Source of the DNA: a virus
IMG/VR virus record: IMGVR_UViG_3300033149_003004
Coordinates: 1-64,000 of that record
DNA length: 64,000 nt
Reading direction: 5' to 3' (one strand)
A program made the translations under genes and the position numbers. The notes below the pieces were generated by a model. The model did not search any database, had not been told where the DNA came from, and saw nothing but the letters and a program-made list of their open reading frames with translations. This document shows, piece after piece, positions 1-35,229 of the stretch (within the stretch, counting starts at the first letter, position 1; each line of letters begins with the position of its first letter).

Positions 1-147
1 GGCTGTCACCGGCAGAGTTTTCAAAACCTGGCCGGAAGTCAAAAGTCTTGGCTGTCACCGGCAGAGTTTTCAAAACCTGGCCGGAAGTCAAAAGTCTTGG
101 CTGTCACCGGCAGACTTTCCGAAACCTGGCCAGAAGTCAAAAGTCTT
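1..147 (+). repeat. 49-bp palindromic tandem repeat, three units
   Basis: Three tandem units begin at 1, 50 and 99 and run in from the left edge, so the array is longer than seen here. Each unit has a CAGASTTTTC-like arm, the centre AAACCTGGCCGGAAG and the arm AAAAGTCTT, so it can fold into a hairpin. The same repeat returns at 7340-7728, inverted at 9949-10041, and singly near 46609. Open frames running through it are by-products: 49 is not a multiple of three. The role is unknown; it resembles REP-type intergenic repeats. Confidence 0.9.
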
Positions 148-172: not shown

Positions 173-1234
173 ATGGATGATCTCGAAGCGATAAAGGCTA
201 TGATGCGACGAGCTGAGAAACGGGACCAGAGGGGCATGTTGCTGAATTGTGGCTCGTCGCTCGTAAACCTGGCTTGCTCCGGGAGAATCGAGGGAGCGTT
301 CCTGACAGGCCACTATTATTTTGTGGTCGGCGACAGCATGTCAGGTAAGACATGGCTTGGCATGAGCTGCTTTGCTGAGGCTGCAAACGACAATCGCTTC
401 GCTGAATATCGGCTGATTTATGATCCGACGGAGATTGGTGCATTGATGGATCTGGAGCAGTATTTCGGCGAGCGGGCGGCAGAACGGATTGAGATACGAG
501 ATCCTCCGAGCGGTACCGCCGAGGAGTTCTACTTCAACGTGACGGATGATTTGGAGGTCGGCCGTCCATTTATTTACGTGCTGGACAGTCAGGATTCGTT
601 GTCCAGTATGGCCGAGCGGGAGAAGTTCGACGAAGCGAAGAAGGCACATCGGAGAGGCAGAGTGACGGCCGGTAGCTACGGAGATAGCAAGGCCAAGGTG
701 CATTCGGCGAACATGCGGAAGCTGATTGGGCCATTGCGAGAGAGTGGCTCTATTCTGATTGTGCTTAACCAGACGCGGGATTCGTTTGACCAATTCAGAC
801 CGTCGACGTACTCCGGCGGTCGAGCTCTGCTGTTCTACGCTACGCTTCAGCTCTGGAACAAGGTGAAAGAGCGGATCAAGCGGAGTGTGCGAGGAAAGCC
901 CAGACAGCTAGGCGTCAAGGTCCGTGTGTCGATCAAAAAGAACCGGTTGACGGGCATGGAGAGATCTGTCGATGTGCCGATCTATCATTCGTTCGGGATC
1001 GACGAAGTGGGCTCGTTGGTCGACTACTTAGTGGATGAGAAAGTATGGCCGAAGACTAGCAACGGGTTTATCGAGGCAGCCGGCTTGGGCCCGGCCGTGA
1101 AGCTACGGCGGGACGATCTAATTCGGAAGATCGAAGAGGAGGAGTTGGTCGACGATCTGCGTGCTTTGGCTCAGCGGACTTGGAGCGAAATCGAAGGCGA
1201 GTGCGAGGTGATAAGAAAGAGGAGATATGTATGA
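173..1234 (+). CDS. RecA-like recombinase/ATPase
   Basis: Probable RecA/RadA-fold ATPase of 353 residues acting in phage recombination or replication. The P-loop GDSMSGKT is at residues 53-60, a Walker B-like strand VLDSQDSL near 136-143, and a late strand LIVLNQTRD near 196 resembles the RecA segment after the L1 loop. The N-terminal CGSSLVNLACSGRIEGAF segment resembles the start of phage RecA/Sak4-like ATPases. AAGGA sits 6 bases before the ATG. It heads a block with flap endonuclease, RuvC-like and SbcCD-like genes, which fits recombination-dependent replication. A DnaB-type helicase ATPase is a less likely alternative. Its TGA stop is shared with the first element of the 47-bp array that follows. 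Confidence 0.75.
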   Translation: MDDLEAIKAMMRRAEKRDQRGMLLNCGSSLVNLACSGRIEGAFLTGHYYFVVGDSMSGKTWLGMSCFAEAANDNRFAEYRLIYDPTEIGALMDLEQYFGERAAERIEIRDPPSGTAEEFYFNVTDDLEVGRPFIYVLDSQDSLSSMAEREKFDEAKKAHRRGRVTAGSYGDSKAKVHSANMRKLIGPLRESGSILIVLNQTRDSFDQFRPSTYSGGRALLFYATLQLWNKVKERIKRSVRGKPRQLGVKVRVSIKKNRLTGMERSVDVPIYHSFGIDEVGSLVDYLVDEKVWPKTSNGFIEAAGLGPAVKLRRDDLIRKIEEEELVDDLRALAQRTWSEIEGECEVIRKRRYV

Positions 1235-1415
1235 GTGAGCGATGTGTAGGGTGAAACCGAGATTTTCCTTGCTTTCTGAGAACAAGCGATCCTCATGCTG
1301 AAACCGAAGAATTGCCTGCTTTCTGAGAACAAGCGACCGCTCAAGTGAAACCGAAGAGCGATATGCTTCCTGAGAACAAGCGAAGTGGAAGTTGAAACCG
1401 AGTTGGTTAGTGCTT
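1232..1415 (+). repeat. 47-bp composite array, left half (two 9-nt variable segments per unit)
   Basis: The box TGAAACCGA recurs at 1252, 1299, 1346 and 1393, exactly 47 bases apart. Between boxes lies a 20-base element TGCTTTCTGAGAACAAGCGA (1270-1289, 1317-1336, 1364-1383 with one change). Conserved parts are separated by segments of exactly nine bases that differ in every unit: tgtgtaggg, gattttcct, tcctcatgc, agaattgcc, ccgctcaag, agagcgata, agtggaagt, gttggttag. The array begins with a degenerate half element that contains the stop codon of the previous gene and ends at TGCTT (1411-1415), just before the leader of the IS110-like gene. It is not a standard CRISPR array: the spacers are too short and alternate between two different repeats. 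Confidence 0.9.
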
Positions 1416-1446
1416 ACCAATACTACCTGAACGGGAGAACCAAGCA

Positions 1447-2358
1447 ATGGCAGTAGAAATTGTCAACGAAGTGAAGCCCTATCCTGAGCTTTCAGGAATC
1501 TGCGAGGAAATCAAAGTCCAATACCGGAGACGAGTGCACTTCATCAAATGTAAGAACCGCCTCCGGAATTGCTTGTTTGCTCATGTAGCTTTAACACTTG
1601 GTTATCGGTCGAATCTCGATAAAAAGCAGAGGGAGAAGATATGGGACGAAGCCGAAAAGCTGGTCAAGTCGGTGCTCGACGGGACGGCGAAGTCGGATTT
1701 GTCCGGAATGATCAAGCATACATGGATGGCTGTGGAGGTACTAGAAAATGTGGCTTCCCAGTACGAGAAAACTATGGTAAAGCTGGCCAGCCAAACGCCT
1801 GTCGCTGGATGGGTGAAGGAACCGGAACAGAGAGGGTTCAGCCTGTTATCACTGGCAAATGTAATCGGAGAATGCGGGGATTTGAATAACTACTCGTCTC
1901 CGTCTAAGGTGTGGCGTCGAATGGGATGTGCTCCCTTCACCAAGGAAGACGAGACGCTGATGGGAGGGACTTGGAAAGGAAGGAAGGGCAATCGAAAAGG
2001 GCTGGCCACCTTATCATCTGCCGAATGGGAGGAGTACGGTTATTGCCCGCGTCGTGCTAGTGTGCGGTACATGATTGGTGCGAACTTCGTCAAGCAGAAC
2101 GGAGACGGGCCATACCGTAGACGCTGGTTGGAGGCGAAGAGGAAAGCGTATTACAAGCATCCCGAGTGGGATTGGAAACCTTGCCCGAAATGTGAGGGAA
2201 GGGCTAATGTTGGTGAAGTATGCAAAGTGTGTGGCGGGACAGGGATGAAATGCGCACGTGCACATAACCATGGCTTGCTGCTGGCGGCAAAGCTGTTGCT
2301 GCTCAATCTGTGGTTGCAATGGACGGGCACGGAGTGGAGGGAATGGAGGCCGTGGTGA
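1447..2358 (+). CDS. IS110-like transposase C-terminal (Tnp/HhH) domain protein with zinc finger
   Basis: 303-residue protein resembling the C-terminal half of IS110/IS116/IS902 transposases. Residues 20-120 look like a helical coil. Residues 132-163 carry SLANVIGECGDLNNYSSPSK and VWRRMGCAP, the pattern of the IS110 helix-hairpin-helix region (GD..Y.S..K.W...G.AP). Residues 205-240 (MIGANFVK, PYRRRWLEAKRKAYY) and 270-292 (ARAHNHGLLLAAKLLLLNLW) match the closing helices of that family. A DnaJ-like CPKC..CKVCGGTGMKC zinc finger at 246-269 is inserted between them. The N-terminal DEDD RuvC-like catalytic domain of full IS110 enzymes is missing. The gene lies inside a 47-bp array, replacing the middle of one 20-base repeat. 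The function of such phage-borne short forms is not known. Confidence 0.7.
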   Translation: MAVEIVNEVKPYPELSGICEEIKVQYRRRVHFIKCKNRLRNCLFAHVALTLGYRSNLDKKQREKIWDEAEKLVKSVLDGTAKSDLSGMIKHTWMAVEVLENVASQYEKTMVKLASQTPVAGWVKEPEQRGFSLLSLANVIGECGDLNNYSSPSKVWRRMGCAPFTKEDETLMGGTWKGRKGNRKGLATLSSAEWEEYGYCPRRASVRYMIGANFVKQNGDGPYRRRWLEAKRKAYYKHPEWDWKPCPKCEGRANVGEVCKVCGGTGMKCARAHNHGLLLAAKLLLLNLWLQWTGTEWREWRPW

Positions 2359-2448
2359 GAAACAAGCGAGGCCAGTTGTGAAACCGATCAGAAAGGTGCT
2401 TTCTGAGAACAAGCGAAAGAACATGTGAAACCGATCGTCGATTTGCTT
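2356..2448 (+). repeat. 47-bp composite array, right half
   Basis: Continuation of the array after the IS110-like gene. A half element TGAGAAACAAGCGA (2356-2369) includes the gene's TGA stop; then ggccagttg, TGAAACCGA (2379-2387), tcagaaagg, the full 20-base element (2397-2416), aagaacatg, TGAAACCGA (2426-2434), tcgtcgatt, and TGCTT (2444-2448). The 47-base period and nine-base variable segments are the same as on the left side. The next gene starts 48 bases further on. Confidence 0.9.
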
Positions 2449-2495: not shown

Positions 2496-3350
2496 GTGTC
2501 AACTGTTCTGATTCTCGACTGCCCGTATTTGGCCCACCGCGCTGAGTCTGTTGCTGGCGGGCTCTCTCACGATGGTGAGCCTACGTCGGTGGTGTTTGCT
2601 TTGCTGCGGGATTTGGTGGCGTGGCAGGATCGGTTCCGATCGGACGCAGTAGCATTCTGCTTCGATTCCGGCAAAAACAAGCGGTTGGCGTTCTACCCTG
2701 AGTACAAACGGAATCGCACTAAGGATGCCACAAAGGAACATCGAATGAAGCGAGTGTTAGTCCGCTATCAGCTTTACCGGCTCATGGAAGAGGACTTGTA
2801 CAAAATCGGCTTCCGCAACGTGTTTTGGGAGGACGGTTATGAGGCAGACGATGTGATAGCTTCCGTCGCTCTGTTCTCGTTGGAGAAAGGGGACGAAGCT
2901 ATCATCGTAGGAAGTGATTCTGATTTGTGGCAATTGATTTCGCCGACTGTTTCGATCTTCGATCCTCGGATGGGCAAGCAAAGGACGTTGCAATGGTTCT
3001 CGCGGGAATACGGTCTGTCGCCAAGCCAATGGGCAGATGTGAAGGCGATTGCTGGTTGCCCGGGGGACAACATCATCGGGGTGGATGATGTGGGGGAGAA
3101 GTCCGCCGTGGCGTTTCTAGCTGGCAGGATGAGCAATGAGCATCGTCGCTACAAAGCAATAATCGAGCACAACGATCTGTGGCGTCGAAACCTCCGGCTG
3201 GTACGGTTGCCGTTCGAGGGTTGCCCACGATTCGACTTGCGGAGGGATGATGTGACGAAAGAGAAGTGGAGACGGTTCTGCAGGCGGTATGGGATGAGGA
3301 GTTTGGCAGGGGCTTTTCCTGGAGTGGGCACATGGCCAAGAGGCAAGTGA
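2496..3350 (+). CDS. 5'-3' exonuclease / flap endonuclease
   Basis: 284-residue member of the T5 exonuclease/FEN family, removing 5' flaps and RNA primers. Metal-binding acidic motifs are visible in order: ILDCPYLAHR (residues 6-15), FCFDSGKN near 50, YEADDVIA near 112, and GSDSDLWQL near 137. The helix-3-turn-helix DNA-binding segment GCPGDNIIGVDDVGEKSA lies near 190. Length is normal for phage and Pol I N-terminal exonucleases. The start is GTG, with GGGTGAG upstream. It sits between the IS110-like gene and the RuvC-like resolvase. Confidence 0.93.
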   Translation: MSTVLILDCPYLAHRAESVAGGLSHDGEPTSVVFALLRDLVAWQDRFRSDAVAFCFDSGKNKRLAFYPEYKRNRTKDATKEHRMKRVLVRYQLYRLMEEDLYKIGFRNVFWEDGYEADDVIASVALFSLEKGDEAIIVGSDSDLWQLISPTVSIFDPRMGKQRTLQWFSREYGLSPSQWADVKAIAGCPGDNIIGVDDVGEKSAVAFLAGRMSNEHRRYKAIIEHNDLWRRNLRLVRLPFEGCPRFDLRRDDVTKEKWRRFCRRYGMRSLAGAFPGVGTWPRGK

Positions 3351-3384: not shown

Positions 3385-3912
3385 GTGGAGCGAGTCGGGA
3401 AGGCCGAAGCTGTGAGAATCTTGGCTCTTGACCTCGCTACGCAAACCGGTTGGGCGCATTCTGATGGGGCTAGCGGAGTGCAGTCGTTCAGGCCTCGCCG
3501 AGGGGACTCGCCGGGCGTGAGATATTTAGCTCTCCGCGCGTGGCTGTCGAGAATGTACGAGTTAGCTCCCTTTGATTTGATTGTCTATGAGCAGCCCCAC
3601 CATCGCGGTGGGCACTCAACAGAAGTGCTGGTCGGTATGGTAACTACCATGCAAGCGTGGGCTGCGGAGCATGGAGTGGAGACAACCGCTCGGCACTCCG
3701 GAGAGATCAAGCGACATGCTTTGGGTAAAGGACGGGGGTCGAAGTTGGCAATGCAGTTGATGGCGGAGCGAGAGTTTGGATTTGAAGTGATAGACCACAA
3801 TCACGCAGATGCGCTGTGGTTGCTAGACCTTGCGAAGAGCGAATTGAACGAACGAATTGACAAGGGGGACCGGCAGACATTTCAAGGTTCTATTGGAGGG
3901 AATACAGGGTAG
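3385..3912 (+). CDS. RuvC-like Holliday junction resolvase
   Basis: 175-residue RNase H-fold nuclease of the phage RuvC-like type, expected to cut Holliday junctions or branched DNA before packaging. Motifs: the first acidic strand ILALDLATQTGWA near residues 12-24, the second LIVYEQPHHRGG near 65, and the last helix DHNHADALWLLDLA near 133. The longest frame begins at GTG 3385, but GTG 3412 starts directly before ILALDLA and has GGAAGG upstream, so it may be the true start. The stop overlaps the next gene's GTG. IS110 transposases join a RuvC-like and a Tnp domain; here both occur as separate proteins 1 kb apart, which may be coincidence. Confidence 0.85.
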   Translation: MERVGKAEAVRILALDLATQTGWAHSDGASGVQSFRPRRGDSPGVRYLALRAWLSRMYELAPFDLIVYEQPHHRGGHSTEVLVGMVTTMQAWAAEHGVETTARHSGEIKRHALGKGRGSKLAMQLMAEREFGFEVIDHNHADALWLLDLAKSELNERIDKGDRQTFQGSIGGNTG

Positions 3913-6566: not shown

Positions 6567-7328
6567 GTGGCTTCTGGGGAACAGAGCGAGAAAGACGCAC
6601 AAGAGAAACGAGAGTGGCGGATGAGTGGGAGTCGAAGAAAGCGGAGTGCTTCGAGTGATGTGGAAAGACTGCGATTGAGGCAGAAGATTACCCATGACTA
6701 TCTGCATGGTGGTTATACGTCTCAACATGAGCTGGCGGTCCGGTACGGAGTCTCTGATGCTACGGTGTGCCAAATTCTAAAGCAGATCAAAACCATTTTG
6801 AGAGAGGAGTTCGAGGAACAGTTTCAGGAGGAAACGGCTAAGCGATTGGCCCAGCTCGAGCTGATGATCGGCAAAGCCAACAGCAGCTTCGAGATCAGTA
6901 AGCAGGAGCAGGTAGAGATCACTATTAGGACGGAGAAGTGTCGTTGCGGGAAGTGTTCCGGTACGGGAGAAAGGGATGGCGAGACATGTCCTGGATGCGA
7001 GGGGCGGGGATACAACTTGCAAGAGGTGGAGACTAAAAAAGTCAGCGGGCAGGCAGGTGATCCACGCTTCTTGGCCATCGTGCTGAAAGGAATCCAGGAG
7101 ATAGCTCGTATTCGGCAACTCTATCCGGAGAGGCAAACTACGAGGCGAACCACGAAGATCGGCCGTCAATACAACGTCGGTGCAATAGCGGTGGAGAACC
7201 GCTTGGAAGGGGCATCGCAAGAAATGCTCCTGGAGGCGAGAAGGCTGATGCTGCGGATCGAGCAGTCGAAGAACAGGGATGATATCGCAGATGTAGAGTT
7301 TGGGAAAAGCGATGAGAGTAAAGAATGA
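6567..7328 (+). CDS. HTH and zinc-finger protein, probable small terminase subunit
   Basis: 253 residues from GTG 6567; ATG 6621 is an alternative start. A helix-turn-helix (TSQHELAVRYGVSDATVCQI, residues 52-71) is followed by a helical region and a DnaJ-like CRCGKCSGTG..CPGCEGRG zinc finger near 130-150. Position upstream of the large terminase and the HTH make a small terminase (pac-site recognition) the best guess, but a transcription regulator is possible. Its last codons contain an 18-base sequence that recurs after the repeat array downstream. Confidence 0.6.
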   Translation: MASGEQSEKDAQEKREWRMSGSRRKRSASSDVERLRLRQKITHDYLHGGYTSQHELAVRYGVSDATVCQILKQIKTILREEFEEQFQEETAKRLAQLELMIGKANSSFEISKQEQVEITIRTEKCRCGKCSGTGERDGETCPGCEGRGYNLQEVETKKVSGQAGDPRFLAIVLKGIQEIARIRQLYPERQTTRRTTKIGRQYNVGAIAVENRLEGASQEMLLEARRLMLRIEQSKNRDDIADVEFGKSDESKE

Positions 7329-7791
7329 GTGACTCCACTACCGTCACCAGATTTTTCAAAACCTGGCCAGAAGTCAAAAGTCTCGGCTGCCACCAGCAGA
7401 GTTTTCAGAACCTCACCAGAAGTCAAAAGCCTCGGCTGTCACCAGCAGACTTTTCAAAACCCGGCCGGAAGTCAAAAGTCTCGGCTACTGTCAGCAGACT
7501 TTTCAAAACCCGGCCAGAAGTCAAAAGTCTCGGCTGCCGCCGGCAGACTTTCCGAAACCTGGCCAGAAGTCAAAAGTCTTGGCTACTGTCAGCAGAGTTT
7601 TCAGAATCTCACCAGAAGTCAAAAGTCTTGGCTGTCACCAGCAGACTTTCCGAAACCTGGCCAGAAGTCAAAAGTCTTGGCTACTGTCGGCAGACTTTCC
7701 GAAACCTGGCCGGAAGTCAAAAGTCTTGGTATGTTGGTGTCTATACGAGCGAAGAACCAAAACACGTCTCATTGCAGATGTAGAGTTTGGG
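7287..7791 (+). repeat. 18-bp direct repeats bracketing the 49-bp array
   Basis: GCAGATGTAGAGTTTGGG is present at 7287-7304, inside the 3' end of the putative small terminase gene, and again at 7774-7791 after the repeat array. In the second copy the downstream sequence differs and reads IADVEFGGRGK then stop, like an original gene end. This is what insertion of the array or a duplication across it would leave. Confidence 0.85.
7340..7728 (+). repeat. 49-bp palindromic repeat array, eight units
   Basis: Eight units of 48-50 bases in the same orientation as the array at 1-147. The consensus is CAGACTTTTCAAAACCTGG followed by CCAGAAGTCAAAAGTCTTGG and a short variable linker (ctgtcacc, ctactgt, ctgccacc). 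AGACTTTT and AAAAGTCT form the stem of a possible hairpin in each unit. Reading frames through the array translate to degenerate KPGQKSKVS / FRNLARSQKSW repeats in all frames and are unlikely to be genes. Confidence 0.92.
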
Positions 7792-14918: not shown

Positions 14919-15335
14919 ATGGTAGTTGGTAGTGTGGTACTGTCAAATCCGCAAGCGATTGGGCTGAGCGTCTTGCTGGTCGCTTTGGCGTTCATGGCCG
15001 GCTTATGGGCACTCTCATTCTGGTATCGCAAAGATACCGAGAAAGAGAATCGTGATCGACAGCGGATCGAATTCGCGGCCAGATTGCAAGAGGCAGGTCT
15101 GGAATTCTCCGCGGATATGGTGACATGCATCGTCGTACGTGACTGGGATGGTTTGGCAAAGCTCGTGTGGAAGTTGGTCAGCCAGGCGAAGGAACCTGGT
15201 GGTTTATTGAGGATGCTGGAAAAGAACTTTTGGTGGCAGTTGGCTCAACGTGTGGATCTTTCGGAAGACTTGTCTAAGATTTCCAGTGCTGTCGGTAAGG
15301 CTAATGCTATGAAAAAGGATAGGGTGAAAAAGTGA
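14919..15335 (+). CDS. single-TM membrane protein
   Basis: 138 residues. TM helix IGLSVLLVALAFMAGLWALS at 14-33, then a charged helix RKDTEKENRDRQRIEF and a cytoplasmic helical domain ending in a Lys-rich tail. AGGAGG lies upstream. Unknown function; membrane topology and position suggest a holin or spanin-like role, without motif proof. It overlaps the next gene by four bases. Confidence 0.6.
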   Translation: MVVGSVVLSNPQAIGLSVLLVALAFMAGLWALSFWYRKDTEKENRDRQRIEFAARLQEAGLEFSADMVTCIVVRDWDGLAKLVWKLVSQAKEPGGLLRMLEKNFWWQLAQRVDLSEDLSKISSAVGKANAMKKDRVKK

Positions 15336-15940
15336 CAGTGGCTCTGCTCTGTGCGGTGGTTGCGCTGGGATTGACACCCGAGCAGGTGAGGGAAGTCTGC
15401 TTTGCCCGTGCGTCCTCTGTCGTGTCGGTGAAGGCGAGTATTTCACTGACTGCTACGGATGGTCGCCATATCTATATGTCCGACGGGACCGTTCGCTACA
15501 CTGCTCCGGACCAGTTTCGGGTGATCGTCTATCGCCGGATAGCGAAACGACAATTGGCGTTCGACTTCGGCGTTAATGGTGAATCGTCTTGGTTCCGGGA
15601 CTATCTACGAAACCAGCAGCGAGACAATCCCGTTGTGGAACCGGCGGGCTTGCTATGGTTGCTCGGGTTGTCACCTCCGATTAGCAAAGCTTCGGCATGG
15701 CGAGACGGTAATTCTGTGGCAGTGGCTGTTCGGGGACCGGGTCGGGTCTGTGTAGCGAGACTTGATGCGAAAACTGCTGCGCTTCGATCGTCTGTTGTGT
15801 ATCGTGATGGGAGGCTGATTGGTTGGTGCCGGTACAGGAAAGTGAACGCTCGCGGTATTCCTGTTTCAGGCATCATCATGGTTGGTGAATCTCGTATGGA
15901 ATGGGTTCTGTACGATGTGCGAATTGAGATAAGTAGTTAG
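15332..15940 (+). CDS. exported LolA/LolB-like protein
   Basis: 202 residues, GTG start. A short hydrophobic N-terminus (VALLCAVVALG) looks like a signal peptide. The following VSVKASISLTATDGRHIYMS, TVRYTAPDQFRVIVYRR and SRMEWVLYDVRIEIS segments form the strand pattern of LolA/LolB-type half-barrels that carry lipid or lipoprotein. A phage gene of this type is uncommon; it might act on the host envelope. Similarity is by pattern only. Confidence 0.5.
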   Translation: MTVALLCAVVALGLTPEQVREVCFARASSVVSVKASISLTATDGRHIYMSDGTVRYTAPDQFRVIVYRRIAKRQLAFDFGVNGESSWFRDYLRNQQRDNPVVEPAGLLWLLGLSPPISKASAWRDGNSVAVAVRGPGRVCVARLDAKTAALRSSVVYRDGRLIGWCRYRKVNARGIPVSGIIMVGESRMEWVLYDVRIEISS

Positions 15941-15968
15941 TTACTCCTAGCGGTGAAGGGTTAAGTTG

Positions 15969-16250
15969 ATGGATAATGTGGCTACGTGGACGGCAATAGG
16001 TGCGGCTGTTTCTGCTATCGGAGTGGCGATAACATCGATTGCTTTTGTAGCAAAGGCATCCTTTCACATAGGTCGAATATCAGCCATCGTCGAGAACGGT
16101 ATGACGAAGACGCTGGAGCATTTGCAGGAAGACATCATCGAGCTATTCCGTGTTTTGAAGGATCTGCCGTGTAAAGATCATGAAGCTCGTGGCCAACACC
16201 GCGATGAGGCGATACGGGATCTGAAAAAAGAAATATCGAAATTGCTATAG
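15969..16250 (+). CDS. small TM coiled-coil protein, holin or spanin candidate
   Basis: 93 residues. Hydrophobic helix TAIGAAVSAIGVAITSIAFV at about 8-27 and a charged C-terminal coil (LEHLQEDIIELFRVLKDL; RDLKKEISKLL). TTG 15966 lies just before ATG 15969. Size and topology fit holin-like proteins near the lysis genes; no specific family recognised. Confidence 0.55.
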   Translation: MDNVATWTAIGAAVSAIGVAITSIAFVAKASFHIGRISAIVENGMTKTLEHLQEDIIELFRVLKDLPCKDHEARGQHRDEAIRDLKKEISKLL

Positions 16251-16294
16251 GAACGCGATTGCATCACAATTTTCGATCACAGAGCAGTTGAGCA

Positions 16295-16900
16295 ATGAAA
16301 CAACTGACAGAGCCATCCGCTACCGACCTGCAAAAGCTGGTCTACAACCACAATCTCGGTGGCAAGCTGAAACAACAGGAAACCTATGATCTTCCTCCTG
16401 GTGCAAGCTGGGCCGTCGTCGGAACTCTTGTGGACGAAGCCCTAACCCCCGATGACGTGCCGACGCTCCAGAAGGCAATTCAGTCGCTTGCTGCTGTGCA
16501 GGCGGCCGAGCCGCTTTGCTGGGGGCGACAGCCTATTGTAGAGGCGGAGGCCTGCGTCGCTATGCTGCATATCTCGGCCGTCTTATCACAGACGATTGCC
16601 ACCGGTACGGACAAGACCTTCGCGGACAAAAGAAGCCTTCACACCTTCCGCGTTCTTCCGAGTGCCAAGAAATGGATTGTCTGGGCCCTGAAGGTGCCTG
16701 TTCCGATCACTCGGGCAAACATCCCAATGCTCAAGACCGCGTTGGAAGACGTGCCTGGGATTGCCCTTGCCGAGCACCTATTCGACGGACAGGTCGACAC
16801 GAGGGCGGTAGGATCAAACCCGCTCAGGGTGGTGTGTCATGCCAGAATTGACCCCGTGAAAGAAGACGAGCCCGAGGAGCCGCTTGATGTCGGTAAATAA
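16295..16900 (+). CDS. hypothetical protein ahead of the structural operon
   Basis: 201 residues, no recognised family. Mixed alpha/beta with KKWIVWALKVPVPITRANIP near 130-149 and an acidic end VKEDEPEEPLDVGK. Its 3' end overlaps the next gene, so it is probably co-transcribed with the virion genes. Confidence 0.55.
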   Translation: MKQLTEPSATDLQKLVYNHNLGGKLKQQETYDLPPGASWAVVGTLVDEALTPDDVPTLQKAIQSLAAVQAAEPLCWGRQPIVEAEACVAMLHISAVLSQTIATGTDKTFADKRSLHTFRVLPSAKKWIVWALKVPVPITRANIPMLKTALEDVPGIALAEHLFDGQVDTRAVGSNPLRVVCHARIDPVKEDEPEEPLDVGK

Positions 16901-21653: not shown

Positions 21654-23314
21654 TGTCCGAAGCTCTGGCCAAAGCGATTCGCAGGACATCGGCGATTGCA
21701 TCACTTGCATTTGCATCGACCAGACAGGTTGGAGGAAGTTCTGGTGCCATTGATCTGGTCCCGTCCGATATGGCGTCCGGTTTGGATTCTTGGCAGAAGC
21801 AACAGGCGTATGCCCATCGCTACAGTCAGATGCGGGGCTGGGTATATTCGGCGATCAACGCTCTGGCCAGTGAAGCGGCTGGGCAACATGCAGTCGTGGC
21901 CCGATTGAGTGGGGTGAAGCGGGAGCAGAAACCGAGAGGAAGCAAGCTCCTAGAATTGACTCGTATGCCGCTGTCGACGCGGAGAAAGGCGGCTGAGCAG
22001 GAATACGAGATTCAGAGGGATCATCCTTTGGTGGATCTGTTGGAAAGACCCAACCCGATTCAAGAGCGATGGCAATTCGTCTATTCCTTTGTCGCTAATT
22101 TGGTGATCACTGGTTGGGCATACATTGTGCTTGGCAGGGCGAAGGGCAAGGACGGGAAGCTGGAGATGTACAGTCTCCCGACAACGTGGGTTAAACCTGT
22201 GCATGATAAGGGATCGTTCTCGTCTTTCGAGGTACGGAATCCGCGGGCAACGGGAGTGGAGCCGGCCATGCTGGATAGGAGTCAAGTGGGGTTTGCTCAT
22301 TTACCGAACCCTGGTGATCCGATGGCGGCACTGGCTCCGGCGTCGACTCAAATGATGGCGATCCGAGTAGACGATCACATTCAGACTTCTCAGGAGGCGT
22401 TCTTTCGGAACGGTATCTTCCCGAGTGTGATCATCACGATGGGTCAAGGGCCGTATCAAGACACAAAAGGGAGGCCAGTATTGACGGGGGCCCAGCGCCG
22501 GCAGATCAACTTGGCTCTGAAGAAGCGGTGGGTTGGGGATGCGAATCAAGGAAACGCCGCGATCATCGATGGCCTGATTGACAAAATTGAGCCTTGGTCC
22601 GTTTCGCATCGAGAAATGGGTTGGGAGCGTAGTGAGGAGAAAGTGAGGACACGGATTCTCAGTGCATTCGGTGTCCATCCGTTCATCCTGGGAGAGGCTG
22701 TCGGAGTGGGAGGGTATGCCCAGGCCGTGATTATCCAGGAGCGGTTCCACAAGCGAGTGAACACATACTTGGAGATGCTCGGTAATCTGTTGACGAACTT
22801 GCTTGGTGGATTGGATGAAAGCGAGCGGATGATCGTTTGGTTTGAGCAATGCCGGGCTAGCGACAAATCGTTAAGGCAGACTTTGTTGCAATTCATGCGT
22901 TCCAATGGAGATATTTCGCAGAATGAGCTAAGAGCCGAGGCTGGCTTTCCGCCGGATGAGGATTTGAATCAGGCTGTGATTCAGCCGAGTATGATGGCGG
23001 GGATTGCTCAGTTTCTTTCGCTGCTCGGAACTGGGCAGATGCAACGAGAACAAGCTGTTGTCGCTTTTGAGCTTATGGGCCTACCTTCCGGAGAGGCAGA
23101 GAAGCTTGCAGGTATGGGCTTGCCCAAGGCTGAGCCTCAGCCTCTGTTGGAAGGGCCAAAGCCGTCGAGCGAGGAAGAAAAACTGGGGGAAGAAGAGAAA
23201 AGCGAGGAGGCCATGGAAGAGCTGAAGATGGCAAACCTTCTGCTGGCCAGAGCGATGGAAGCGTCCGAATGGCAAGCGGAGCGGATCTTGAGGAGTGTCG
23301 AGTGCTCTTGCTGA
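21653..23314 (+). CDS. portal protein (HK97 type)
   Basis: 553 residues. Typical elements: GWVYSAINALASEAA near 62-76; HPLVDLLERPNPIQERW near 123-139; FVANLVITGWAYIVLGR; the long segment DDHIQTSQEAFFRNGIFPSV; ILSAFGVHPFILGEAVGVGG and the YAQAVIIQERF helix before the clip-wing region. It forms the dodecameric entry ring for DNA. The C-terminal tail is rich in Glu and Lys. GTG 21650 directly precedes the ATG. The 3' end overlaps the MuF gene. Confidence 0.92.
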   Translation: MSEALAKAIRRTSAIASLAFASTRQVGGSSGAIDLVPSDMASGLDSWQKQQAYAHRYSQMRGWVYSAINALASEAAGQHAVVARLSGVKREQKPRGSKLLELTRMPLSTRRKAAEQEYEIQRDHPLVDLLERPNPIQERWQFVYSFVANLVITGWAYIVLGRAKGKDGKLEMYSLPTTWVKPVHDKGSFSSFEVRNPRATGVEPAMLDRSQVGFAHLPNPGDPMAALAPASTQMMAIRVDDHIQTSQEAFFRNGIFPSVIITMGQGPYQDTKGRPVLTGAQRRQINLALKKRWVGDANQGNAAIIDGLIDKIEPWSVSHREMGWERSEEKVRTRILSAFGVHPFILGEAVGVGGYAQAVIIQERFHKRVNTYLEMLGNLLTNLLGGLDESERMIVWFEQCRASDKSLRQTLLQFMRSNGDISQNELRAEAGFPPDEDLNQAVIQPSMMAGIAQFLSLLGTGQMQREQAVVAFELMGLPSGEAEKLAGMGLPKAEPQPLLEGPKPSSEEEKLGEEEKSEEAMEELKMANLLLARAMEASEWQAERILRSVECSC

Positions 23315-25782
23315 CCGACCGTCGAAAGCCGAGTATTGTTCAAATTCGCCGAAAACTCACGGCCGTCCGCCGTCGCCGGTTTGAGCTGGCTGCGAAAAGC
23401 ATGCGTCTGGTGCAAAAGGTGGTGGCTAATCGGCAGTTTATGTCCACCGAGCGGGAAGTGACGAAAGCTCTTATCCCGTTTTTTGTCGAGCAGGGACGTT
23501 CGATGGCTGCTCGGCTGCGGAGGATTGAGCAGAAGACTGTAGAGAATCTATGGACGAAACGGACTTCTCTCGGCTCTGCTGCTGGCTTGATTCAGCTGAT
23601 CTTTGATCCAAAAGAATGGCGTACCAATCTGACAAATCGTTTGTTGCCGGTACTAGCCCGAAAGATGGCAGAAGCTGGCGTGGCCCACCTGATGACGCTG
23701 GGAATCGACGTGCGGAGAAAGCAAAGGAAGAAGGGATTGAAGACCACTACTGCTGCGGATTGGGCTGAGGAGAACATTGCCGATTGGGATTCGCTTGTCG
23801 AGGCTTTTGAAGCTTCTAATCTACCAATGGGAATCATGAACGAGATTCCTACTTGGATGCAGGAGAGCATCGCTGAGAGACTCTCTGAGAGTTTTGCCGA
23901 AGATTACTGGGATTCGATTAGCAAGACGACGATGGGGGATGCCGAGAAAGTCTTGCGGCAGGGATTATCTGAAGGATGGTCGATCGGTGATATGGCTGGA
24001 GAGCTACGGCAGTATTTTGAGGAGGGAGGGTTTCGATATGCCCGACGCCGGTCGGAGAACATCGCCAGAACCGAGTCCGGGAATGCTCTGAACGCTGCTA
24101 GGAAGGGCAGCGTCGCTCGACTTCAGCAGGAATTGGGACCTGAAGTGCCGATGAAACAATCGTGGCTTTCCGTGCTAGGCATTACAACGCGAGACACACA
24201 CGCGGAGCTGGATGGTGTACCGGAGAATGAACGAGGAATGTGGGTCTTATCCGGTTACGAGATACCGTGGCCCGGACATATTAGCTTGCCTCCTTCGGAG
24301 CGCTGCAATTGCTTCCCTGCTGGAACGTTGGTGTCAGGAGATTTTGTCGGGGCGCAGAGAGCGTGGTACGAGGGGACATTCACCGAAATCATAACTGGCT
24401 CTGGGAGGAGGATCACCACAACCCCACAGCACCCAATAGTGACCTTGGAGGGACTTGTTCCGGCAGGCGAGGTCAAGCCAGGCCAGAAGGTCTTGGCCTA
24501 TCGTCCGGAGGCTGATTTGCCGTCGGTGGTGGCTTCCCGTGGCGATGATGTAAAGAACGAACCAGTTGCGGTCGAGCAGCTTTTTGAGGCGTTTCTTGCC
24601 GGGACGGTTGCCGCCTCGTCCAGCATTGAAGTCAAACGCGCTCAGGTGGACGATTTCTATGGCGATGCGAAATCCTTTCAGGGCGATATCGAGATTGTAC
24701 GGGCCAACTGGGGCCTGTTGGACGATGGGAAATTCGGCCAGTTTGAGAAACGTGGCAATTCTGTCCTCATCTGTGTGGATTCCGGTTTGGTTTTGGAATT
24801 TAGAGATCGCTCTTTTGGCCTTGCGTCTGGTCGGATCGGATCGTCCCCTTCTAGCGGTCCACGCCTTGCTGAGCCACTGCTTAGCTGCCTTCGATCTATC
24901 GCCAGCATCACGCCATCGGGCTCGCTGTCCGTCGGAGTAGCTGCGGATTTCCACGTTCGCCTCGATCAATCGTTGAGACAGGACGGCCCTGGAATATCCG
25001 GTTTCCTTCGAGAGTCGTTGGAGCGGTATGCCGGATTGGTACAGTTTGATGATGTGGTCGAGGTCAGGGATTTCTATTCTGCGGGTCATGTTTACGATCT
25101 CCAAAGCCGGTGGGGATTGGTGGTTGCTTCCGATCCATTATACACTGACAATCGTTTTCCTCCTAGTGGAATTGTCGTGTCGAATTGCCAGTGCAGTCTC
25201 ACGATTGAGTTTGGGATGGACCCTGCCGAAGCCATGCAGAGGATAGAGGAGTATTGGCAACATGTAGAAGAATGGGAATCGAAAGGCTACGTGTGGCCTT
25301 GGCAGAAGTACAATCCGAACCGTGATCCTGCAACTGGAAGATTTGCTCCTGGCGGAGGTGGAGATGATGGAGGTGGAGCAAGCGGAAGGGAAGAGGGAAG
25401 AGCCGAGCGGGCGAGACGCGCACATAAGACAAGCACAGCAGAGAAGCAGAGGAGGGGAGAAGCAGAGCAAAAGCGGATGGCCAAGGCAATCGGGGGTGAG
25501 AACGATGGGGATAATAAACCATTCGATGTGATCGTGGGAGGGAAGCATGGGATTGAAGTCAAGACTGTGATGGATAACAACAACGATAAGATCACCGTGC
25601 ATCCTGAATCTCGCCGGCGGAAGGAAGCTGCCGCCAAAAAGCAAAAGCTAAAGATTCACACTATAGCTATTGATATTCGTGAGGGAAAGCGATCTTATTA
25701 TTACAGGGAGGGGGTTGGAGCCTTCCGCCTCAAAAATATGGAGAAAGTATCGCTTCGGCAGTTGAAGGAGAAGTTCCGGTGA
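23302..25782 (+). CDS. MuF-type minor head protein with intein and C-terminal nuclease domain
   Basis: 826 residues from GTG 23302, preceded by GAGGAG (the frame is open from ATG 23269). Residues to about 336 form a Mu gpF/SPP1 gp7-like domain, ending in ARTESGNALNAARKGS, TRDTHAELDG and LPPSERCN. An intein of 292 residues follows (24310-25185). The extein resumes CQCSLTIEFG, then NPNRDPATGRFAPGG and a Gly/charged linker. The last 90 residues, FDVIVGGKHGIEVKTVMDNN onward, have a D...ExK pattern and a basic helix, like a PD-(D/E)XK nuclease. MuF proteins carrying toxin domains at the C-terminus are known; the protein may be ejected with the DNA. Confidence 0.85.
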   Translation: MLLLTDRRKPSIVQIRRKLTAVRRRRFELAAKSMRLVQKVVANRQFMSTEREVTKALIPFFVEQGRSMAARLRRIEQKTVENLWTKRTSLGSAAGLIQLIFDPKEWRTNLTNRLLPVLARKMAEAGVAHLMTLGIDVRRKQRKKGLKTTTAADWAEENIADWDSLVEAFEASNLPMGIMNEIPTWMQESIAERLSESFAEDYWDSISKTTMGDAEKVLRQGLSEGWSIGDMAGELRQYFEEGGFRYARRRSENIARTESGNALNAARKGSVARLQQELGPEVPMKQSWLSVLGITTRDTHAELDGVPENERGMWVLSGYEIPWPGHISLPPSERCNCFPAGTLVSGDFVGAQRAWYEGTFTEIITGSGRRITTTPQHPIVTLEGLVPAGEVKPGQKVLAYRPEADLPSVVASRGDDVKNEPVAVEQLFEAFLAGTVAASSSIEVKRAQVDDFYGDAKSFQGDIEIVRANWGLLDDGKFGQFEKRGNSVLICVDSGLVLEFRDRSFGLASGRIGSSPSSGPRLAEPLLSCLRSIASITPSGSLSVGVAADFHVRLDQSLRQDGPGISGFLRESLERYAGLVQFDDVVEVRDFYSAGHVYDLQSRWGLVVASDPLYTDNRFPPSGIVVSNCQCSLTIEFGMDPAEAMQRIEEYWQHVEEWESKGYVWPWQKYNPNRDPATGRFAPGGGGDDGGGASGREEGRAERARRAHKTSTAEKQRRGEAEQKRMAKAIGGENDGDNKPFDVIVGGKHGIEVKTVMDNNNDKITVHPESRRRKEAAAKKQKLKIHTIAIDIREGKRSYYYREGVGAFRLKNMEKVSLRQLKEKFR
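24310..25185 (+). other. intein (Hint domain) within the MuF protein
   Basis: Block A CFPAGTLVSG starts at Cys codon 24310; block B is ITTTPQHPIVTLEGLVPAGE with the conserved T..H; the C-terminal part is AGHVYDLQSRWGLVVAS followed by GIVVSN, with Asn codon 25183-25185 directly before Cys+1 (25186). The insertion splits the MuF sequence RCN/CQCSL. No LAGLIDADG motif is visible in the sense strand; the interior coincides with an antisense endonuclease gene. Confidence 0.85.
24334..25089 (-). CDS. homing endonuclease encoded antisense inside the intein
   Basis: 251 residues on the minus strand from ATG 25089 (a TTG 15 bases upstream is also in frame), with GGAG nine bases before the ATG. The N-terminus has a resolvase-like HTH, HIIKLYQSGIPLQRLSKETG then YSRAVLSQRLIEANVEIRSY. 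The middle, EFPIVQQAPVGPYNLDIALK followed by GFRIAIEIVHLS, has the D...E core of Vsr/PD-(D/E)XK-like endonucleases, then KKRLKKLLDRNWFVLYIIA. This fits free-standing phage homing endonucleases. The gene lies entirely within the intein coding sequence. The C-terminal 40 residues may be only an antisense read-through of Hint blocks. Confidence 0.72.
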   Translation of the reverse strand: MTRRIEIPDLDHIIKLYQSGIPLQRLSKETGYSRAVLSQRLIEANVEIRSYSDGQRARWRDAGDRSKAAKQWLSKAWTARRGRSDPTRRKAKRAISKFQNQTGIHTDEDRIATFLKLAEFPIVQQAPVGPYNLDIALKGFRIAIEIVHLSAFDFNAGRGGNRPGKKRLKKLLDRNWFVLYIIATGSHHRRQISLRTIGQDLLAWLDLACRNKSLQGHYWVLWGCGDPPPRASYDFGECPLVPRSLRPDKIS

Positions 25783-27187: not shown

Positions 27188-27988
27188 ATGAATGTCACTT
27201 TCTTTTTGGGTCATGCTAGTGGGGCTCTACTGAGCCGGACCTTGACGATCACCCGTATGCCTAGGGCCGGGGATACACTACCGATCACCCCGCAGTACGG
27301 CCCGGCAAATGTGGGAGCAGCGACGCAGATCATTACGGTATCACTGCCCCCAAACCAGATATGGCAGGCGAGATTGGATGATGTCACGCTCGCGGGAAAT
27401 ACGAATGCTCCTCCGGCGATTCTGAACTTTCACACCGGATCACTACAATTCCCCGGGCCGCGAGAGAAGGAAGACCTGCGATTGCAAATCCTCCACATGG
27501 AGGAACAATCCAGCTCGTCCAGTTCCAGTTCGGTCAGCAGTGAGAGCAGTTCGTCGTGGTCGAGTCATTCTGCGAGTAGCGAGAGCAGTTCCAGTAGTGC
27601 TTCGAGTGCATCGAGCAGCTCTTCGAGTAGTAGCTCCAGTAGCTCGTCAGCCACGTCTAGCTCCAGTAGCTCCAGCAGTTCTTCGGCTACATCCAGTTCC
27701 AGTAGCTCTTCGGCTACATCCAGTTCCAGTAGCAGTTCTGCCACGTCGAGTAGCAGTTCCGAGAGCAGCGTGAGTAGTAGTTCCAGCAGTAGCTCTTCGG
27801 CTACATCCAGTCCCAGTAGTGCTTCGAGTGTATCGACCAGCTCCAGTAGCTCCAGTAGCTCCAGCAGTACGTCGAGCCAATCGAGTGTCTCGACTAGCTC
27901 CAGCTCCAGTAGCACGTCGAGCCAATCGAGCAGTAGTAGCAGCAGCATGAGTAGTTCGTCGTGGTCGTCGCAGTCGACGGTTGCTTAG
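27188..27988 (+). CDS. virion protein with long serine-rich C-terminal tract
   Basis: 266 residues. Residues 1-105 form a beta-rich domain (TFFLGHASGALLSRTLTITR; TQIITVSLPPNQIWQARLDD). From about 106 to the end the protein is nearly all Ser, broken by E, A-T, W and Q (WSSHSASSESSS-like units). Serine codons mix AGY and TCN, so the tract is maintained as protein and not as a simple DNA repeat. A surface decoration or appendage protein is likely; the tract could carry O-glycans. Confidence 0.65.
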   Translation: MNVTFFLGHASGALLSRTLTITRMPRAGDTLPITPQYGPANVGAATQIITVSLPPNQIWQARLDDVTLAGNTNAPPAILNFHTGSLQFPGPREKEDLRLQILHMEEQSSSSSSSSVSSESSSSWSSHSASSESSSSSASSASSSSSSSSSSSSSATSSSSSSSSSSATSSSSSSSATSSSSSSSATSSSSSESSVSSSSSSSSSATSSPSSASSVSTSSSSSSSSSSTSSQSSVSTSSSSSSTSSQSSSSSSSMSSSSWSSQSTVA

Positions 27989-33840: not shown

Positions 33841-34337
33841 GCGTTGGGCAAGCCGATCTTGCGAAGGCGATCAATGTAGTCTGGGATGCAAGCGGGCTGA
33901 ATGATCTGTTCAAGGCTCTGTGGCCGGCCGGCGTCGCTGCTGTCGAGTTCCCAGTGCTGCATGAGGGACAGGCTGGTGGGGATCAGCCCTGGCCGTACTG
34001 CGTGTTCGAAATGCCCGGAGCTTCTACGGCAACGAGAATGTCGAAAGGGGTGTCGGATCTCTGGGAGACAAGGGACGCAGCCGTGATGTTCAGAGTACAT
34101 TCGTCTGCTGTATCTGGTGATGACAGATCGGCTAAGCAGATTGCTGCCTACTTGGTCGAGGAGATCATGAAGGTGTTTGGCGGGCATCCTACAGTGTCTC
34201 CGACGGATTTAGAATTGGACAACGGGAACTTTTTGAATTCGATCTTTCAGAATGACTTTGCGGTGCGAGAAGATGAGGATCATTACGTGTGGACGGTGAG
34301 CTACATCTTCCGTCTGGATGTCCCGATCATGGCGTGA
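33837..34337 (+). CDS. tail terminator / tail completion protein
   Basis: 166 residues. AINVVWDASGLNDLFKALWP, PYCVFEMPGASTATRMSKGV and YVWTVSYIFRLDVPI match the alpha/beta pattern of tail terminators (lambda gpU-like/DUF3168-like) that stop tail tube growth. It overlaps its upstream neighbour by four bases. Confidence 0.62.
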   Translation: MSVGQADLAKAINVVWDASGLNDLFKALWPAGVAAVEFPVLHEGQAGGDQPWPYCVFEMPGASTATRMSKGVSDLWETRDAAVMFRVHSSAVSGDDRSAKQIAAYLVEEIMKVFGGHPTVSPTDLELDNGNFLNSIFQNDFAVREDEDHYVWTVSYIFRLDVPIMA

Positions 34338-34350
34338 GGAGGGAGATAAT

Positions 34351-35229
34351 ATGGCAAGACAGATGGACTCAATGAGCATATCGCTCAAGGCGAGTGGCTC
34401 GCTGAAAAACGTGCTGGATGACGGTTCCAGCTCTCCCATCAACCATCCGAACTTTGCGTACACGAAAAGCGGATCGACTCTGTCGAGTGGAATAAACGAC
34501 AATGAGGCAAACCGTGCCTGGCAAAGCAAAAACAGAACGCTGATAGAAGGGACGAGCGAGACTCTTGATCTGTATGACTTGGCTGGGATAGACATTGGAG
34601 CCGGTGCCGGGATGGACGGAGTCGGACAGCCGATCATCTTCGAGGAGATTGTGTTCTTGGCGATTGTCAACGAGAATGCAGTCGGGACAGACGGAGCGTT
34701 AGAAATCGCTCCCGCTGGCGTTGCTGGGTGGGCCCCGATCGGTACGCATACGGTAGCTACAGGCGGAGCTCTGTACGGACAGGGGGTGTTGCTGAAGATT
34801 CAGCTTGATGAGCGTGGGTTCGACGTGCAGGATGGAGTCAGTCATCGGATTACGCTGGGAGCGAACGGTGGGGATGTGATTTATTCGATATACATTGTGG
34901 CCCGACATGATGATGAGGAGTCATCCAGTTCCAGCAGTTCGCTCAGTTCCAGTTCGGCCAGCAGCGAGAGTAGCTCCAGTAGTCTCAGTAGCTCCAGTAG
35001 TAGCTCTAGCAGTAGCTCTTCGAGCAGCGAGAGCAGTGTGAGTATGAGCAGTTCCAGCAGTTCGTCGGCAACGTCGAGCAGCTCTTCGGTCAGCAGCAGT
35101 TCATCGAGCAGTTCGTTTAGCTCGAAGTCTAGCAGTTCGTCGGCAACGTCTAGCTCCAGCAGTTCGTCTGCTACGTCGAGTAGCTCTTCGAGCAGTAGTT
35201 CTGCGACGAGTTCTTCATGGTCGTCATAG
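34351..35229 (+). CDS. tail-region protein with serine-rich C-terminal tract
   Basis: 292 residues from ATG 34351, chosen for its very strong GAGGAGGGAG ribosome site. Residues 1-185 are beta-rich (MDSMSISLKASGSLKNVLDD; GDVIYSIYIVARHDD); the rest is a Ser tract with A-T, E, V, F interruptions, as in 27188-27988. It precedes the tail tube gene and may be a tail decoration or an appendage. Confidence 0.62.
   Translation: MARQMDSMSISLKASGSLKNVLDDGSSSPINHPNFAYTKSGSTLSSGINDNEANRAWQSKNRTLIEGTSETLDLYDLAGIDIGAGAGMDGVGQPIIFEEIVFLAIVNENAVGTDGALEIAPAGVAGWAPIGTHTVATGGALYGQGVLLKIQLDERGFDVQDGVSHRITLGANGGDVIYSIYIVARHDDEESSSSSSSLSSSSASSESSSSSLSSSSSSSSSSSSSSESSVSMSSSSSSSATSSSSSVSSSSSSSSFSSKSSSSSATSSSSSSSATSSSSSSSSSATSSSWSS

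What the first reader, a model, noticed from the sequence alone, without database searches (positions are those of the whole stretch)
1232..2448. Array with two alternating conserved boxes and nine-base variable segments, linked to an IS110-like gene
Seen: six TGAAACCGA boxes (four left, two right of the gene), 47 bases apart within each block, alternate with a 20-base element TGCTTTCTGAGAACAAGCGA, and all conserved parts are separated by exactly nine variable bases, a different nine each time (12 segments). Each variable segment is preceded by CGA and followed by TG. Known: IS110 transposases use bridge/seeker RNAs with short guide segments held in structured loops. Inference: the array could give RNAs with paired nine-base guides for the Tnp-domain protein between the two halves. 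Plain alternatives are replication iterons or operator sites with unconstrained spacers.
Basis: partly seen in the sequence, partly recalled or inferred. Interest (0 to 1): 0.92.

Follow-up and report, generated by a model that had tools for sequence, protein, structure and literature searches.

The report
Phage TIGR-TasA dual-guide RNA system
This phage carries a small array of six two-part RNA guides on both sides of the gene for their partner protein: a TIGR-Tas system (a recently described relative of IS110 and snoRNA machinery) without a nuclease domain, with an unusual array form and unknown targets.

Summary
Six units (box C CGA, N9, box D TG..loop TGAAACCGA, N9, TG) flank the gene at 1447-2358, with 12 different spacers and no such unit in 100 shuffles. 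It is not an IS110 element. It is a TIGR-Tas system (Faure et al. 2025, PMC12045711) with a nuclease-less TasA. NCBIfam's TIGR_Tas model matches the protein (4e-15, below its cut-off), and the nine best PDB fold matches are all TasH or TasR. A DNA-only search for the array pattern in viral contigs found 16 contigs with array-like loci, 15 with a Tas gene alongside. The seven nearest Tas proteins (38-44% identical) lie beside arrays or loops of the window's type; the clade has 100/99 support. Two features depart from the published dual-repeat type: the edge repeat is 20 nt (not 8-12), and the protein lies on the stem-loop-array branch. In related phages, matched hairpins keep their stems while spacers are random (25% identity), as expected of guides. 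The cassette is absent from sister phages and sits in two different slots of one recombination operon. No target was found. A conserved, unnamed companion gene accompanies most relatives but is missing here. Transcription, processing and DNA binding are inferred from homology.

The parts
1238..1242 (+). 5'-truncated edge repeat (AGCGA, box C = CGA) opening the left array block
   Evidence: starts 4 nt after the stop codon of the upstream uvsX-like gene
1243..1269 (+). Unit L1: spacer A TGTGTAGGG (1243-1251), loop repeat TGAAACCGA (1252-1260), spacer B GATTTTCCT (1261-1269)
1270..1289 (+). Edge repeat TGCTTTCTGAGAACAAGCGA (box D TG ... box C CGA)
1290..1316 (+). Unit L2: TCCTCATGC / TGAAACCGA / AGAATTGCC
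1317..1336 (+). Edge repeat
1337..1363 (+). Unit L3: CCGCTCAAG / TGAAACCGA / AGAGCGATA
1364..1383 (+). Edge repeat with one change (TGCTTCCTGAGAACAAGCGA)
1384..1410 (+). Unit L4: AGTGGAAGT / TGAAACCGA / GTTGGTTAG
1411..1415 (+). 3'-truncated edge repeat TGCTT closing the left block
1447..2358 (+). TasA: 303-aa Nop-domain protein without a nuclease domain; coiled coil about 15-114, HhH/Nop core about 120-220, C-terminal helix 267-293, Cys4 zinc-finger-like insert about 245-266
   Evidence: NCBIfam NF052498 TIGR_Tas_endo 4e-15, 56 bits, cut-off 100; AF2 pLDDT 74, pTM 0.72; Foldseek PDB top nine hits all TasH/TasR, probability 1.00; profile hits 9mty TasR 1e-13 and TasH 1e-4
2360..2369 (+). 5'-truncated edge repeat AAACAAGCGA opening the right block, directly after the tasA stop codon
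2370..2396 (+). Unit R1: GGCCAGTTG / TGAAACCGA / TCAGAAAGG
2397..2416 (+). Edge repeat
2417..2443 (+). Unit R2: AAGAACATG / TGAAACCGA / TCGTCGATT
2444..2448 (+). 3'-truncated edge repeat TGCTT closing the right block
173..1234 (+). Flanking gene: UvsX/RecA-like recombinase (context, not part of the system)
   Evidence: PF00154 1.6e-11, phrog_97 8.8e-32; L040 has uvsX followed 3 nt later by fen with no cassette
2496..3350 (+). Flanking gene: 5'-3' exonuclease (FEN) (context)
   Evidence: PF02739 3e-21
3385..3912 (+). Nearby RuvC-like resolvase, judged not part of the TIGR system
   Evidence: phrog_159 9e-14; also present in L040, which has no tas or array between uvsX and ruvC

Best explanation
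It is a TIGR-TasA cassette. The two array blocks are read on the + strand with the surrounding operon and cut inside the 20-nt edge repeats into six small RNAs, each AGCGA-spacer A-UGAAACCGA-spacer B-UGCUU (about 37 nt; the truncated edges at the array ends keep these halves). A TasA dimer holds the two box D/box C pairs (UG..CGA) of one RNA. Spacer A pairs with one DNA strand and spacer B with the other, so each RNA specifies an 18-bp site reading 5'-A-revcomp(B)-3' with a 0-2 bp gap. Having no nuclease domain, TasA would bind and bend these sites, blocking transcription or replication of a competing element or regulating a gene, rather than cutting. Shown here: the array, the Tas identity of the protein, box C type following the Tas clade, spacer turnover in relatives, and gain or loss as a cassette. 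Inferred from the published family: transcription, processing, DNA targeting. Guess: the biological purpose.
For: Array anatomy matches the published TIGR form: 9-nt spacers; both repeats begin UG and end in the same box C; truncated edges at the array ends; blocks on both sides of the gene (PMC12045711). Protein: NF052498 4e-15; fold hits; profile hits to 9mty and TasH. DNA-only search for TGAAACCNA-N9-TG-N5..30-CNA-N9-TGAAACCNA found 38 viral stretches; 16 contigs among them look like TIGR loci and 15 have a Tas ORF. Nearest Tas proteins are 38-44% identical and form one clade with the window, 100/99. In that clade the closing stems fit within a unit (mean 5.5-6.8 bp) and not between units (1.1-2.7 bp) in L065, L066, L069, L074 and L082. 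In alphaproteobacterial relatives, 37 stem-matched pairs (85% stem identity, the selection criterion) have spacers at 25% identity.
Against: No RNA data. The edge repeat is 20 nt, not 8-12. A single window unit does not fold clearly better than shuffles in five of six cases. No terminator-like site was found after either block. The NCBIfam score is below the curated cut-off (56 against 100). Foldseek E-values are modest (1e-3) and the model is poor at 167-186 and 238-267. No targets beyond chance.
Confidence: 0.93

Rival explanations
1. An IS110 transposase remnant with a bridge-RNA-like element: the protein recombines DNA using guides from the array.
For: IS110 and Tas share the Nop-type RNA-binding domain; 9mty itself is titled 'Transposase IS116/IS110/IS902 C-terminal domain'; true IS110 proteins give weak hits (Roos phage IS110).
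Against: No Pfam hit at E<1 and no NCBIfam IS110 hit for the window protein; the model begins with the coiled coil, with no N-terminal DEDD/RuvC domain; top fold hits are Tas; a multi-unit array is not a bridge RNA.
Confidence: 0.02
2. Replication iterons or operator sites bound as DNA by the protein, with unconstrained 9-bp spacers.
For: Regular spacing; short boxes; position in a replication and recombination operon.
Against: The box pairs occur beside tas genes across many phages. In relatives each unit has its own self-complementary stem, which implies a folded RNA. Spacers are exactly 9 nt and are replaced completely while stems stay. The cassette moves together.
Confidence: 0.02
3. A nuclease-recruiting TIGR system: TasA works with the phage's separate RuvC resolvase (3385-3912) as a split TasR that cuts targets.
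For: RuvC gene about 1 kb downstream; L059, a relative with a tas cassette, also has ruvC close by.
Against: ruvC is present in L040, which has no tas or array between uvsX and ruvC; it matches a common phage resolvase family (phrog_159).
Confidence: 0.04
4. A regulatory use of the same TIGR-TasA machine (rival only as to purpose): the guides address the phage's own or the host's genes, as an RNA-guided repressor or timing switch, not competing elements.
For: No nuclease domain; placement in a replication and recombination gene cluster.
Against: No own-genome site better than chance for any of six units; the host is unknown, so host genes are untested.
Confidence: 0.3

Closest known systems
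TIGR-Tas systems with nuclease-less TasA (Faure et al. 2025, PMC12045711; NCBIfam NF052498)
   Same: Nop-domain protein between two array blocks; two alternating repeats with 9-nt spacers; both repeats start UG and end with the same box C; truncated edges at the ends; phage-borne
   Different: Edge repeat 20 nt (published dual-repeat arrays 8-12), period 47 nt; box C CGA rather than the CCA of the TasR arrays; Cys4 insert in the protein
Stem-loop TIGR arrays (same paper; here the alphaproteobacterial phage loci L005-L028, including Rhizobium phage RHph_X2_25)
   Same: The Tas protein falls on this branch; loop of similar form (UGAAACCGA against CGAAACCCA); inner stem halves AAG/CTT plus the box C/D pair close each unit
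   Different: Stem only 3 bp plus the box pair and identical in all units (a shared edge), instead of a long private stem per unit
IS110 transposases with bridge/seeker RNA
   Same: Related RNA-binding (Nop) domain; tandem guide logic
   Different: No catalytic domain, no donor loop, many units, no element ends
Box C/D snoRNP (Nop5/Nop56/58)
   Same: Box C/D-anchored dual guides on a Nop dimer; weak fold hits 3id5 and 3siv
   Different: No kink-turn or L7Ae site seen; presumed DNA target; phage gene
CRISPR arrays
   Same: Repeats with unique spacers and an effector gene
   Different: 9-nt spacers, two alternating repeats, no adaptation genes found beside it

Membership tests
TIGR-Tas | Tas (Nop-domain) protein beside the array | tested here: met
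   NF052498 4e-15, below the equivalog cut-off; Foldseek top nine hits TasH/TasR; profile to 9mty 1e-13
TIGR-Tas | Two alternating repeats separated by 9-nt unique spacers | tested here: met
TIGR-Tas | Edge and loop repeats both begin with box D and end with the same box C | tested here: met
   TG...CGA in both repeats
TIGR-Tas | Array begins with 5'-truncated and ends with 3'-truncated edge | tested here: met
   Both blocks
TIGR-Tas | Rho-independent terminator after the array (typical) | tested here: not met
   None by consensus scan; typical, not essential
TIGR-Tas, dual-repeat type | Repeats of 8-12 nt | tested here: not met
   Loop 9 nt, edge 20 nt
TIGR-Tas, dual-repeat type | Tas lies in the dual-repeat Tas clade | tested here: not met
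   TasR, TasH and L076 separate from the window's side, 100/99; fragments and long branches, so a caution applies
TIGR-Tas, stem-loop type | Each unit has its own palindromic stem | tested here: not met
   Stem identical across units: own 3.0 bp, cross 3.07 bp
TIGR-Tas | Array transcribed and processed to about 36-nt tigRNA | not testable with these tools
   Needs RNA data
TIGR-Tas | tigRNA-guided DNA binding through both spacers | not testable with these tools
   Needs biochemistry; no natural target found
IS110 | N-terminal DEDD/RuvC catalytic domain with C-terminal Tnp domain | tested here: not met
   No Pfam or NCBIfam IS110 hit; model begins with the coiled coil
IS110 | Single bridge RNA with target and donor loops | tested here: not met
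   Six equivalent two-guide units

The most novel reading that the evidence does not exclude
TIGR arrays with shared edges arose a second time. On the stem-loop branch, private hairpins were homogenised into one repeated edge (window; L061/L073), independently of the published dual-repeat TasR/TasH clade. In this branch TasA normally works with a second, unnamed protein that the window phage lacks, and guide pairs are replaced in place inside conserved hairpins.
Probability: 0.45. Interest if true: 0.6.

Novelty: new variant of a known kind. Interest (0 to 1): 0.5.

Why it matters
TIGR-Tas was described in 2025 and its biological role, natural targets and spacer origin are open. This locus gives a complete, small nuclease-less system. 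It lies in a phage family where sister genomes without the cassette exist, and its relatives allow comparison: box C type follows the protein clade, and spacers turn over while stems stay, which is evidence from evolution that the 9-mers are guides. It also shows an array form between the two published types, and its relatives expose a companion gene that could be tested as a missing second component.

Tried and rejected
Single-sequence AF2 gave a useless model (pLDDT 39); the 15-row alignment gave 74. Close-relative scans with the window protein found nothing in viral or genome contigs. Hits to phiM7/phiM12 were antisense and judged chance; Roos was a true IS110. Exact search with the longer box in viral contigs found none. 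Self-target search in the 82.7-kb record: best 3 mismatches, judged chance. All-against-all target searches among fetched loci were near re-paired or scrambled controls. Exact target scans of viral contigs: R1 two hits (L046, collagen-like gene; L047), both with a 2-nt gap; L2 none; judged chance level for a collection of this size. L1, L3, L4 and R2 were not scanned there. Two spacer pairs of the R. esperanzae prophage in 200 Rhizobiaceae genomes: 0 and 1 hit, the latter in an ordinary chromosomal region. RNA folding of single window units was not clearly better than shuffles in five of six cases. RuvC as part of the system was rejected because L040 has it without the cassette.

Full report
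What is there. The window is the first 64 kb of an 82,655-base virus record. Between a uvsX/recA-like gene (173-1234; PF00154 1.6e-11, phrog_97 8.8e-32) and a FEN-type 5'-3' exonuclease gene (2496-3350; PF02739 3e-21) lies a cassette of about 1.2 kb: four array units, a 303-aa gene, two more units. Each unit is box C (CGA), 9-nt spacer A, loop repeat TGAAACCGA, 9-nt spacer B, box D (TG). Units are joined by a 20-nt edge TGCTT(T/C)CTGAGAACAAGCGA. All 12 spacers differ (mean identity 23%); the unit grammar occurs six times in the window and never in 100 shuffles. Both blocks open with a 5'-truncated edge (..AGCGA) and close with a 3'-truncated one (TGCTT).

What the protein is. Pfam is silent. 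NCBIfam NF052498 (TIGR-Tas) matches at 4e-15, 56 bits, below its cut-off of 100; the IS110 model does not match. In a control search the TIGR-Tas model also rang in 3 of 14 well-known genomes, never over its cut-off, so a sub-cut-off hit alone does not prove membership. Other evidence agrees. A profile of relatives matches the TasR cryo-EM chain 9mty (1e-13) and TasH (1e-4). The AlphaFold model (pLDDT 74, pTM 0.72) has as its nine best PDB matches TasH and TasR chains, probability 1.00, with the next hit at E=0.9. The model starts with the coiled coil, so there is no nuclease domain: a TasA.

The known system. [quoted passage not shown] 9-nt spacers; box D UG and box C at the ends of both repeats), processed to 36-nt tigRNAs that pair with both DNA strands. 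It also describes stem-loop arrays, and solo-Nop TasA proteins of unclear role. From its cutting rule I derive the target as 5'-A-revcomp(B)-3' with a 0-2 bp gap. Natural targets are described there as hard to identify.

Comparative tests. (1) Starting from the protein, relatives were found in alphaproteobacterial phages and prophages. Their flanks hold stem-loop TIGR units of the same grammar: 117 units in 15 loci against 0-6 in shuffles. (2) Pairs of hairpins matched by stem sequence (37 pairs, 85% stem identity, chosen for it) have spacers at 25% identity, the random value. One pair has 24 of 24 stem bases and 1 of 18 spacer bases in common. This is what guides would do and is hard to reconcile with protein-binding sites. 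(3) Starting from DNA alone, a scan of viral contigs for two linked units with loop TGAAACCNA gave 38 stretches. By inspection 16 contigs look like TIGR loci with varied spacers; 15 have a Tas ORF. Most of the rest are plain tandem repeats without Tas. (4) The seven nearest Tas proteins (38-44% identical) sit beside arrays with the window's box C and loop; for L059 this was read by eye, as its units did not pass the strict pattern. The clade has 100/99 support; all CCA-type arrays lie outside it. (5) In that clade L065, L066, L069, L074 and L082 have mostly different closing stems from unit to unit, complementary within the unit but not between units. The window and L061/L073 instead repeat one short-stem edge.

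Array form. In a tree with TasR and TasH fragments and L076 (a classical dual-repeat locus), the dual-repeat Tas proteins separate (100/99) from the branch that holds the window. The window's shared-edge array is therefore probably a derived or intermediate form on the stem-loop branch. Long branches and partial sequences limit this claim.

Cassette behaviour. Related phages share a uvsX-fen-ruvC-smc-sbcD-atpase gene set in part or whole. L040 has uvsX and fen 3 nt apart with no cassette; L038 has a weakly ParB-like gene in that slot; L059 carries its tas cassette between fen and ruvC. So the unit is gained or lost together. The RuvC gene is ordinary phage equipment.

Targets. No site in the phage's own record, in fetched relatives, in viral contigs (two of six units scanned) or in Rhizobiaceae genomes (two spacer pairs of a relative) rose above chance. 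The host is unknown; I did not test it.

A companion gene. A 170-210 aa protein with no Pfam, PHROG or NCBIfam family lies just upstream of tasA (downstream in L023) in most relatives of two clades. Profile searches linked the two groups over rounds of iteration (first-round E about 1e-4; positions). In 121 Rhizobiaceae genomes the companion profile hit two; one was a query source, and the other, a new locus, had a Tas gene (1.9e-108) and nine TIGR units beside it. The window phage has none detectable. The paper's main text says TIGR systems generally have a single protein, with a ParB-like gene in some; its supplements were not readable here, so novelty of the companion is unconfirmed.

Verdict. 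A TIGR-TasA system in a variant array form; identity well supported, mechanism inferred from the family, purpose open.

Noticed in passing
L074:5248-5802, L069:10602-11153 (-), L065:7734-8237 (-), L066:9101-9625, L059:2123-2641, L010:4463-5062, L005:2732-3328, L088 and others: A conserved 170-210 aa protein without a known family lies next to tasA in most relatives of two clades; a blind profile search in Rhizobiaceae found one new locus and it had Tas and TIGR units. It is absent from the window phage. Candidate second component of TIGR-TasA.
   Followed up: partly
L005:3798-3960, L008:6017, L009:5732, L024:4228-4800, L027:4543-4750: TIGR hairpin units lie inside the open reading frame of tasA, in its variable N-terminal part, so guide RNA and protein coding seem to overlap.
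   Followed up: partly
L008/L009/L005 and L017/L019 flanks: Matched hairpins with near-identical stems and unrelated spacers: guide pairs seem to be replaced in place. How is unknown.
   Followed up: partly
L063:1340-1530: A classical dual-repeat array (TGTGAACCA / TGAAACCCA, about 36-nt units) on a contig where no Tas gene was detected.
   Followed up: no
window 1447-2358, residues about 245-266: Cys4 zinc-finger-like insert (CPKC...CKVC) in TasA; similar Cys motifs in L059, L061, L069 and L074 of the same clade, none seen in the alphaproteobacterial Tas.
   Followed up: no
window 1-147 and 7284-7776; L012 near 18.5 kb: Arrays of a 49-nt tandem repeat, also at the far end of the record; gene order against L038 suggests a circular or permuted genome whose contig ends fall in this repeat.
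   Followed up: partly
L038:6228-7112: A weakly ParB-like protein (TIGR00180 E 0.095, below threshold) occupies the uvsX-fen slot in the closest sister phage; a ParB-like gene is reported beside some tasA genes in PMC12045711.
   Followed up: no
window 27188-27988, 34318-35229, 41855-43183: Proteins with long serine-rich repeat tails, probably virion surface proteins.
   Followed up: no
window 23269-25782; L012:13014-14975 and 14972-16489: Intein/Hint-like inserts in a head protein, a DNA methyltransferase and a clamp-loader gene, judged by eye from the translations.
   Followed up: no
L042, L043, L044 just after uvsX: Cluster of short repeats built from GTCATGACATCTGGCATG-like words in an intergenic region.
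   Followed up: no
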